DNA of 64,000 nt from Devosia neptuniae (lineage in GTDB: Bacteria; Pseudomonadota; Alphaproteobacteria; Rhizobiales; Devosiaceae): positions 1,240,001 through 1,304,000 of the forward strand of contig NZ_CP104965.1 of the NCBI RefSeq assembly GCF_025452235.1, given 5' to 3'. This document shows positions 4,683 through 8,102 of the stretch, in pieces. The position numbers and the translations under genes are program-made. The notes beneath the pieces are model-generated. The model did no database searches. It had not been told where the DNA came from and saw nothing but the letters and a program-made list of their open reading frames with translations. Numbering within the stretch: position 1 is the first letter of the stretch; the number at the start of each line of letters is the position of its first letter.

Positions 4683-4699
4683 TTGGCACGGAACTTGCC
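4683..4699 (+). promoter_or_regulatory. Sigma-54 (-24/-12) promoter upstream of rpoN
   Basis: TTGGCACG (4683-4690), four bases, then TTGCC gives the invariant GG (4685-4686) and GC (4697-4698) separated by exactly 10 bases. This matches the consensus TGGCACG-N4-TTGC. It lies between the lptB stop and the rpoN ATG at 4791, so transcription would begin near 4711 and read only rpoN. No enhancer-binding site was identified. Confidence 0.75.
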
Positions 4700-4790
4700 C
4701 TATCGCTTGCCCCGTGCCGCGAAATGAGGCATGGTGCCGCCGGGAAGTGGCCAGAAACGGCCAGGATTTTTGCGTTTCAGGGACGGATGG

Positions 4791-6301
4791 ATGGCACTTT
4801 CGCCGCGGCTCGAATTTCGGCAGGCTCAAAGCCTGACGCTGACGCCGCAATTGATGCAGTCGATCCGGCTGCTGCAATTGAGCCATCTGGAACTCAACGA
4901 TTTCGTCGATGCCGAATTGCTGCGCAATCCCCTGCTCGAGCGCGAGGATGGGGCCGAGCCGGGCGACGCCGAACCCGCGGAAGTGCCCGAGCGCACCACC
5001 GAAATCAGCGCCTATGAAGATACCGTGGAGCGGGGCGAGCGCATCCAGGATGCCGGCTCGATTGCCGATGGCTATGACACGGCGGTCGAGAATGTGTTTC
5101 CCGACCAGGCGGCGCAGGACCAGTTGATTCCCACCAGCCGGCTCGACCGCAATGGGGCTAGCGAAGGTGGGGACGCGCCCGATATCGATCAATTCGTCGC
5201 CTCACGGCCCTTGCTCTCCGAGCATCTGGAGGCCCAGGCCAATCTGATCCTGCGCATGCCGGCGGACCGGATGATTGCGCGCCATCTGATCGATAACCTC
5301 AACGAGGCCGGATATCTGGCGGTCGAACTCGACAGCATTGCCGAATTGCTGGGGGCCGAACTGGCCGATGTGGAGGCGGTGCTGGGGGCCTTGCAGGGCT
5401 GTGACCCGGTGGGGGTATTTGCCCGTACCGTGCCGGAATGCCTTGCCATGCAATTGCGCGAGCGTGACCGGCTCGACCCGATGATGCAGGCGCTGCTCGA
5501 CAATATCGGGCTTCTGGCCGAGCATAATGTGGCGGGGCTATTGCGTGCAGTGGGCTGCGATCGCGAGGACCTGGCCGACATGCTGGGCGAAATCCGCCGG
5601 CTCGATCCCAAGCCTGGGCTGGCCTTTGACAGCGGGCCGATCGAAGCGGTGGTGCCTGATGTGTTCGTGCGGCCGGGGCCGGATGGCGCCTGGCAGATCG
5701 AGCTCAATACCGAAGTGCTGCCGCGCGTGCTGGTCAATCGCGTCTATTATACCAGCGTCACCAAAAAGACCCGCGAGCCCAGCGAAAAGGCGTTCCTGTC
5801 CGATTGCCTCGCCACCGCCAATTGGCTGACCAAGAGTCTGGACCAACGGGCGCAGACGATTTTGAAAGTGGCGGCGGAAATCGTGCGGCAGCAGGATCAG
5901 TTCCTGGTGCATGGCATCGCCCATTTGCGGCCGATGACGCTCAAAATGGTGGCCGAAACCATCGACATGCATGAATCGACCGTCAGCCGGGTGACCTCGA
6001 ACAAATATATCGCTACGCCACGCGGCCTGTTCGAGATGAAATATTTCTTCACCACCGCGATTGCCTCGAGCGTTGGCGGGGGGATCACTCGGCCGAGGCG
6101 GTGCGCCACCGCATCCGCCAATTGATCGAGGCCGAGGCGATCACCGACGTGCTCTCGGACGACACCATTGCCGAGCTGCTGCACAAGGAGCAGGGGATCG
6201 AGCTGGCCCGGCGCACTGTCGCCAAATACCGGGAGGGCATGAATATTCCCTCCTCGGTGATCCGCCGCCGGCAGAAGAAGAATCTGGAGCATGCCGGCTA
6301 A
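4791..6301 (+). pseudogene. rpoN: RNA polymerase sigma-54 factor RpoN, frameshifted in a G run
   Basis: The start at 4791 gives the classical N-terminus MALSPRLEFRQAQSLTLTPQ with the Gln-rich activator-interacting region. The core-binding region and the HTH (VAETIDMHESTVSRVTSNKY) follow. The frame breaks at the G6 run 6078-6083 and stops at 6123-6125. The remainder continues in another frame, VRHRIRQLIEAEAITDVLSD and so on, and contains the intact RpoN box ARRTVAKYRE that reads the -24 element. One extra G restores a single product of about 503 aa, the normal length. As printed, the product lacks the RpoN box and would not recognise promoters. A one-base sequencing or assembly error is the main alternative to a true mutation. 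The order lptB-rpoN is conserved; hpf and ptsN, usually next, are absent here. Confidence 0.9.
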
Positions 6302-6401
6302 GTAGCCTTTGCGATTGCCCAATATGGGGCGGAGCCCCTATGGTTCCTGTGGGCAAAAGTGGGACGAATCGCGCGCCTGCTGCCACCGGATTTGAGTGTG
6401 C

Positions 6402-8102
6402 ATGAGCAAGGCGGCGGAAACCAAGACGATCCACACCCGGTCTGGATCCCGCTCGATCATATTCTATCTGCTGGTGCTGGCCTTTGCCGGCGTCGTGCCG
6501 AGCTTTCTGTTCGCCGGCATCCTGATCCAGCGCAATCAGGCGGCGCAGGAAAGCACTGTCGAAACCCTGATCGTGGCGACGTCGCGCTCCATCGTGCAGG
6601 CCATGGAACGCGAAATCGCCGCCAATATCACCACCTTGCGCGTGCTGGCCGCCTCCCCTGCCCTGCGCGCCGGCGATTATCGCAGCTTTTACGATGCCAG
6701 TGTCGTGGCGCTGGCCGGCACCAATGCCAATCTATTCATCGTCAATCCCGATTTCAGCACCTTTGCCAGCACGCGCGAGCCATTCGACAGCCCGCCCAGA
6801 ACCACCAATGACATACCCTCCAGCGAGCGCGCCTTTGCCGGCACCGAACCGGTGGTCACCGACCTGGTGTTTGGCGCGGTGTCGCGGCAATGGGTCTACA
6901 ATATCCTCTTGCCGGTCGATCTGGGGCCGGAGGGCACCAAGCTCATCGCGCTCAACCAGCCTGCCAGCAATTTCGCCGGCGCGCTGTCGGCCAATAGCCT
7001 GCCCCAGGGCTGGAACACGGCCCTGCTCGACAATGAGGGCCGGATCATCGCCGCCACGCCCGGGGTGGGCGAAGCGGGCGAGGATTTTACCCCGTTCAAC
7101 GCCATGGCGCAGGCCTTCTCGCTGGGCTGGCAGCATCTGGATACCAATCAGGGCGCCGCTTTGGGCGTGATCCAGCGCTCGGTCACCACCGGCTGGCGGC
7201 TGGTGGCCTGGGCGCCGGTGTCGAGCATTTCCCAGCCCTTGCTCATTGCCGTGCTGATGCTGATCGCCGGCGGCATCGTGCTGCTGGGGCTGATCCTGGC
7301 AGCCCTGTTCTGGGGCAGCAAGCGCATCGGCAGCTCGGTGCGGGGTCTGGCACGGGATGCACGGCGGCTGGGCGCGGGCGAGCCGGTGGTGGCCAAGCCC
7401 TATCCGGTCTCGGAAATTGCCGAAGTGTCCGAGGCGCTGGAACAGGCTTCCGAGGTCCGCCAGGCGGCCGAGCGCGAGGTGCGGTTCCTGCTGCGCGAAC
7501 TGGCGCATCGCTCCAAGAACCAGATGACCGTGATTGCCGCGATGGCCAAGCAGACCGCCCGCGGCGCCACTGACCTGCCCAGCTATGTGCAAGCCTTCGA
7601 GCGGCGCATTCTGGGATTGGCCCGCTCCACCGACCTGTTGCTCACCCATGGCACGGCCGGCGTGCTGCTGGGTGAATTGATCGAACACCATATCGAGCCG
7701 TTCCGCCCGGTTACGGCCGGAAGGGTGCAGATTGCCGGCCCCGCCGTGCGGCTCAATGGCCAGGCGGCGCAGACCCTGGGCATGGCGGTGCATGAACTGG
7801 CCACCAATGCGGTCAAATACGGCGCCTTTCTCGATGACGAAGGGCATTTGTCGGTGACCTGGCAAAGGGACGGCGAACGGCTCGAGCTAGTCTGGCGGGA
7901 AACCCTTGTCAGGACGCTGGAGGCGAGCGAGCGCAGCGGCTTTGGCACCACGGTGCTCAAATCCATGGTCGGGCGGGCGCTGAATGCCGAGGTCGAGCGG
8001 ATCTATCACGCCGATGGGCTGGAGTGGCGCTTCGCAATTCCGCTCGCGGGCATCGATCCGGCGCTGGCCCCTGCCCCCGCCGACGAGCCTGATTCGGAAT
8101 AA
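6402..8102 (+). CDS. Membrane sensor histidine kinase, HWE family
   Basis: This 566-aa protein has a first membrane helix at about 22-42, a periplasmic sensor region of about 240 residues, a second helix near 280-305 and a HAMP-like linker. The kinase domain is HWE-type: phospho-acceptor [16 protein letters not shown] (His about 369), N-box [13 protein letters not shown], the diagnostic Trp-X-Glu in LELVWRE, and G-box [15 protein letters not shown]. The periplasmic part may be a Cache-like ligand-binding domain, which is uncertain. HWE kinases often feed PhyR-type general stress signalling, but no response regulator gene is adjacent. ATG 6402 is preferred; a GTG lies two codons upstream. It follows rpoN by about 100 bases. 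Confidence 0.85.

What the first reader, a model, noticed from the sequence alone, without database searches (positions are those of the whole stretch)
6070..6125. rpoN broken by a one-base slip in a G6 run
The N-terminal frame of rpoN stops at 6123-6125, while the RpoN box ARRTVAKYRE lies intact in another frame at about 6200-6245. Adding one G to the run 6078-6083 restores a full 503-aa sigma-54. As printed, the protein lacks the part that reads -24 promoters. Either this strain has lost or phase-varies sigma-54, or the base is missing from the assembly.
Basis: seen in the sequence. Interest (0 to 1): 0.7.

Follow-up and report, generated by a model that had tools for sequence, protein, structure and literature searches.

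The report
Probable assembly slip in rpoN
A soil bacterium's gene for the alternative sigma factor sigma-54 looks broken in the printed genome, but the same genome also shows genes broken that cells cannot live without, so the break is most likely a sequencing or assembly error.

Summary
In this Devosia genome the only rpoN is read in two frames that change at the G tract 6078-6083. The first frame stops at 6123-6125; the RpoN box lies in the other at 6206-6235. A same-species genome (G067) has rpoN in one frame.

The main evidence is a control inside the same assembly. metG (the only MetRS gene found) and accC (the stand-alone biotin carboxylase beside accB) are also split by single-base length differences. 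A living cell needs both, so the assembly contains false breaks. Behind the break, rpoN differs from G067 only in synonymous codons (5 of 5).

Other tests point the same way but are weak. G/C tracts are shorter here in 9 of 80 cases and in G067 in 3 of 76 (P 0.13). A blind count of split genes gives 10 against 5 (P 0.30).

One result goes against it: two of six sigma-54 activator genes (flbD and a dctD-like gene) are broken too (P about 0.002 to 0.013). Real loss of the pathway is not excluded.

Noticed: a sigma-54 type promoter upstream of rpoN in many Devosia.

The parts
4684..4698 (+). sigma-54 type (-24/-12) promoter-like site upstream of rpoN
   Evidence: TGGCACGGAACTTGC; a site of the same pattern lies upstream of rpoN in 51 of 78 related loci; one of 19 matches to the pattern in this genome, against 6 for the reversed control
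4731..6125 (+). rpoN, first frame: activator-interacting domain, core-binding domain and first part of the DNA-binding domain; ends at a premature TGA (likelier start at 4791)
6078..6083 (+). G tract at which the reading frame changes; its length differs from that in the same-species genome G067
6084..6301 (+). rpoN, second frame: the rest of the DNA-binding domain, to the stop codon
   Evidence: Sigma54_DBD positions 97-160 at 6077-6271; stop read
6206..6235 (+). RpoN box ARRTVAKYRE, in the second frame
   Evidence: read from the sequence; the name and role of the box (reading the -24 element) are recalled and in the finding

Best explanation
The frame break in rpoN is most likely an uncorrected single-base length error of the assembly in a G tract, and the living strain makes a normal sigma-54. 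Shown: the break, the single copy, the intact gene in the same-species genome, and breaks of the same kind in two genes that cells need. Inferred: that this particular tract is one of the errors. No reads were available, and the sequencing method of this assembly is unknown to me.
For: (1) In the same assembly metG (contig C2 about 3,318,570) and accC (C2 about 3,267,895) are each split into two frames at a single-base length difference from G067. For metG, the other matches to the family are weaker and lie in frames of 898, 1004, 942 and 499 aa, which I take by recalled size for other class I synthetases. accC lies next to accB (TIGR00531 over its cut-off), and the other strong biotin carboxylase matches lie in frames of 696, 1194 and 1179 aa. 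The accC lesion is at a G/C tract, as in rpoN. That both genes are needed for life is established knowledge. (2) rpoN stays under selection: 41 of 51 differences from G067 lie in synonymous codons before the break, 5 of 5 after it. (3) 74 of 75 genus genomes have the domain, and only this one has it in two pieces. (4) Two other rpoN genes split by frame, at other places, are in records titled chromosome or complete genome (L103, L105). (5) Weak: G067's clean G/C tracts of six or more are shorter here in 9 of 80, the reverse 3 of 76 (P 0.13). (6) PMC12007338 (passages read) says errors in long reads are mostly short indels at homopolymers.
Against: Two of the six other sigma-54 activator-type genes are also broken at G/C tracts. 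Given rpoN, P is about 0.002 with 12 broken genes, 0.006 with 20 and 0.013 with 29. Of the six G/C-tract shortenings in coding sequence, three are in sigma-54 system genes. 70 of 80 G/C tracts agree with G067, so the error is no blanket one. A/T tracts show no excess (6 of 108 against 7 of 114). A blind count of split genes gives 10 here against 5 in G067, P 0.30. The metG lesion is not in a plain long homopolymer. The assembly scores 99.95% complete. No reads were seen.
Confidence: 0.8

Rival explanations
1. The strain has really lost sigma-54, recently, and activators that depend on it, FlbD (flagella) and a DctD-like response regulator, have begun to go with it.
For: rpoN, flbD and the dctD-like gene are all frame-broken here and intact in G067. 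The coincidence has P about 0.002 to 0.013 given rpoN.
Against: Breaks of the same kind hit metG and accC, which cannot be real. Behind the break, differences from G067 lie in synonymous codons in rpoN 5 of 5, flbD 34 of 36, dctD-like 34 of 39, so no decay is visible. The other four activator genes have the same open-frame lengths as in G067, and the promoter-like site before rpoN is unchanged.
Confidence: 0.17
2. Slippage of ribosome or polymerase on the G tract makes some full-length sigma-54 from the printed gene (programmed or phase-variable).
For: A G tract lies at the point of change; the RNA behind it can fold (-31.6 kcal/mol).
Against: The fold is not unusual (z -1.15; 30 of 200 shuffles fold as well). 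78 of 80 related loci read rpoN in one frame and none of the other two is split here. The tract is 2 to 5 bases in 78 of 80 loci, and six is short for a phase-variable poly-G tract (recalled).
Confidence: 0.03

Closest known systems
Gene-fragmenting single-base errors in long-read assemblies (for example PMC12007338, passages read)
   Same: Single-base length differences, many at homopolymers, that split conserved genes in a contiguous assembly of 2 contigs
   Different: The sequencing method here is not known to me; 70 of 80 G/C tracts agree with the sibling, and A/T tracts show no excess
Sigma-54 (RpoN)
   Same: AID, CBD and DBD with RpoN box; intact in G067
   Different: As printed, the DNA-binding domain is cut into two frames

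Membership tests
Sigma-54 factor (RpoN) | AID, core-binding and DNA-binding domains over the Pfam cut-offs | tested here: met
   all three found; the DBD is split over two frames
Sigma-54 factor (RpoN) | one continuous reading frame through the RpoN box | tested here: not met
   as printed, the frame ends at 6125 before the box; it is continuous in G067
Assembly indel artefact | single-base length difference at a homopolymer, absent from a sibling | tested here: met
Assembly indel artefact | genes needed for life broken in the same way in the same assembly | tested here: met
   metG and accC
Assembly indel artefact | breaks commoner here than in the sibling | tested here: inconclusive
   By inspection 12 against 1, but inspection was closer on this genome's side; blind rule 10 against 5, P 0.30; G/C tracts 9 of 80 against 3 of 76, P 0.13
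Assembly indel artefact | raw reads disagree with the printed tract | not testable with these tools
   no reads held
Phase-variable homopolymer gene | long tract, variable among relatives | tested here: not met
   six bases here; 2 to 5 in 78 of 80 loci and 7 in two
Phase-variable homopolymer gene | mixed tract lengths within one culture | not testable with these tools
   no reads held
Programmed frameshift gene | site and frame change conserved among relatives | tested here: not met
   78 of 80 related loci read rpoN in one frame, and none of the other two is split at this site

The most novel reading that the evidence does not exclude
This Devosia strain shows sigma-54 being dismantled, caught at its start: rpoN, the flagellar activator gene flbD and a dctD-like activator gene all lost by slips at G/C tracts, while the sigma-54 type promoter before rpoN and the other four activator genes are still intact.
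Probability: 0.16. Interest if true: 0.5.

Novelty: not a real feature. Interest (0 to 1): 0.15.

Why it matters
Taken at face value, the strain would be annotated as lacking sigma-54, FlbD and a DctD-like activator, which is probably wrong. The case shows a simple control: before believing a frame break in a regulator, look in the same assembly for the same kind of break in genes that cannot be lost. If the loss were real, it would be a rare view of a whole regulon starting to come apart.

Tried and rejected
Counting split genes. One search found 29 G067 genes split in this genome (903 of 935 had a match) and 25 genes of this genome split in G067 (960 of 1044 had a match). Many of these are over-long starts or antisense ORFs. 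By inspection I accept 12 here: 11 of the 29, plus accC, which came. I accept one in G067, a short-chain dehydrogenase at C2 about 3,217,062. That inspection was uneven: 15 places in this genome were aligned base by base, while the reverse list was judged from coordinates, and several of its 25 rows are pieces of genes broken here. A blind rule (every piece at least 20 aa and coding-like) gives 10 here and 5 in G067, P 0.30. It misses metG, accC and the 226-aa gene, and it takes in one case that I had rejected as antisense. So I do not rest on the asymmetry. One search tested 11 against 1 (P 0.006); I no longer use that figure.

Dropped from the count here: C2 3,267,679 (between two genes), 3,534,296, 3,325,880, 3,459,721, 2,035,505 and 1,582,725 (start or gene end uncertain). 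The RNA fold behind the tract neither helps nor harms. Few-contig against many-contig genomes with an interrupted rpoN frame gave 3 of 34 against 0 of 40, P 0.09 (hand count, tested), too weak to use.

Papers: three searches. Read as passages only: PMC12007338, PMC3538637 and PMC3616915 (the last not used). The search for papers holding both Devosia and rpoN listed one review, which I did not read. I have not shown that the promoter before rpoN is unreported. My confidence in the assembly error went down from 0.84 to 0.80 after the blind count.

Full report
What is there. The window lies in a genome of 4.72 Mb in two contigs, scored 99.95% complete. It is a Devosia, judged from the close named records. 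The contig of the same-species genome G067 that holds rpoN has 111,953 bases, the same length as record UCAU01000060.1, isolate AFS059704. The rpoN frame 4731-6125 carries the activator-interacting domain, the core-binding domain and positions 2-98 of the 160 of the DNA-binding domain. Positions 97-160 lie in the next frame at 6077-6271. The change falls at the G tract 6078-6083. The first frame stops at 6123-6125, the RpoN box is at 6206-6235, and the second frame ends at 6299-6301. No other rpoN was found in the genome.

Relatives. 74 of 75 genomes of the genus have the domain, and only this one has it in two pieces. G067 carries the gene in one frame and differs in tract length. Of the 80 best loci from named genome records (a capped list), 78 read rpoN in one frame. 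The other two, L105 (Devosia sp. A8/3-2, titled complete genome) and L103 (D. algicola, titled chromosome), are split elsewhere in the gene. At the tract position the longest G run is 2 to 5 bases in 78 of the 80 loci and 7 in two, L059 (the same-species record) and L128. In one search, G004 and G053, in 6 and 2 contigs and scored 90% and 84% complete, have short open frames (324 and 272 aa) around the domain; I did not follow these.

The control that decides. In the same assembly, metG is split into two frames (matches 1-66 and 58-390 of the family), and no other full match to that family exists. accC is split as well (matches 1-381 and 374-447 of TIGR00514). It is the gene next to accB (TIGR00531), and the remaining strong matches lie in much longer frames. 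Both breaks coincide with a single-base length difference from G067, in accC at a G/C tract. Cells cannot do without these genes (established knowledge). So this assembly contains false single-base breaks, and one in rpoN needs no other cause.

How common are breaks? In a first comparison of 652,874 aligned bases there are 248 indels, 180 of them single-base. In the enlarged sample (1.22 Mb here, 1.12 Mb of G067), 813 of the 903 matched G067 genes are at least 97% covered in one frame. By inspection I accept 12 frame-broken genes here: rpoN, flbD (NF050807 over cut-off), a dctD-like response regulator (NtrC/AtoC type; the name DctD is recalled), metG, accC, an ABC permease, a heparinase-like gene, a ROK family gene, a SorC/DeoR-like regulator, a malic enzyme, a 226-aa protein without family match and an autotransporter-like gene. 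I accept one in G067. Inspection was closer on this genome's side. A blind rule gives 10 against 5, P 0.30. The asymmetry is therefore only suggestive.

Tracts. Of 80 clean pairs of G067 G/C tracts of six or more, 70 are equal here, 9 shorter and 1 longer. In the reverse test 72 of 76 are equal, 3 shorter and 1 longer in G067. A/T tracts are even, with 6 of 108 and 7 of 114 shorter in the other genome. The G/C difference alone is not significant (P 0.13). By my reading of the ORFs, six of the nine shortenings are in coding sequence and all six break the frame; three of these are rpoN, flbD and the dctD-like gene.

Selection. Differences from G067 that lie in synonymous codons: rpoN 41 of 51 before and 5 of 5 after the break; flbD 18 of 19 and 34 of 36; dctD-like 22 of 22 and 34 of 39. 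The breaks are either very recent or not real.

Against this reading. Seven sigma-54 system genes are in the sample, rpoN and six genes with a strong PF00158 match, and three are broken. Given rpoN, the chance of two or more of the other six among the broken genes is about 0.002 if 12 of about 903 are broken, 0.006 if 20 and 0.013 if 29. I searched for activators before I knew of any other break. In G067 there is one G/C tract of six or more in each of rpoN, flbD and the dctD-like gene, and one near, though perhaps not in, a fourth activator. So these genes are not unusually rich in such tracts. I therefore keep real loss of the sigma-54 system at about 0.17.

A side result. A sigma-54 type site lies at 4684-4698, upstream of rpoN. 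The same pattern lies within 220 bases upstream of the second Met in 51 of 78 related loci (2 of 80 lacked upstream sequence). All 80 loci, both strands, hold 53 matches in total, and the flanks differ widely. It is missing in the Pelagibacterium, Maritalea, Parvibaculum and Methylobacterium loci and in two loci labelled Devosia (L114, L121). This points to autoregulation of rpoN in most Devosia. The kind is known: PMC3538637 (passages) cites negative autoregulation of rpoN in Rhizobium leguminosarum and NifA control of rpoN2 in R. etli.

Verdict. Most likely an assembly error, confidence 0.80. Ordinary, with a clear control; interest 0.15.

Noticed in passing
window 4684-4698: A sigma-54 type (-24/-12) promoter-like site upstream of rpoN, present in 51 of 78 related loci with varied flanks and absent from the Pelagibacterium, Maritalea, Parvibaculum and Methylobacterium loci examined: likely autoregulation of rpoN in most Devosia.
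   Followed up: partly
C2 about 2,132,030 (L049) and C2 about 3,538,442 (L046): flbD and a dctD-like activator gene are frame-broken at G/C tracts in this genome and intact in G067.
   Followed up: yes
C2 about 3,318,570 (L150) and C2 about 3,267,895 (L148): metG and accC are frame-broken in this assembly, evidence of false breaks.
   Followed up: yes
L105 (CP104974.1) and L103 (CP118246.1): rpoN is also split by frame, at other places, in two Devosia records titled complete genome or chromosome.
   Followed up: partly
window 4731-4793: The first ATG of rpoN is probably not the start: six of 80 related loci have a stop in the first 22 alignment columns, none later; the Met at 4791 is likelier.
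   Followed up: partly
window 6396-8102: An HWE histidine kinase gene follows rpoN; in many other bacteria rpoN is followed by hpf and ptsN (recalled).
   Followed up: no
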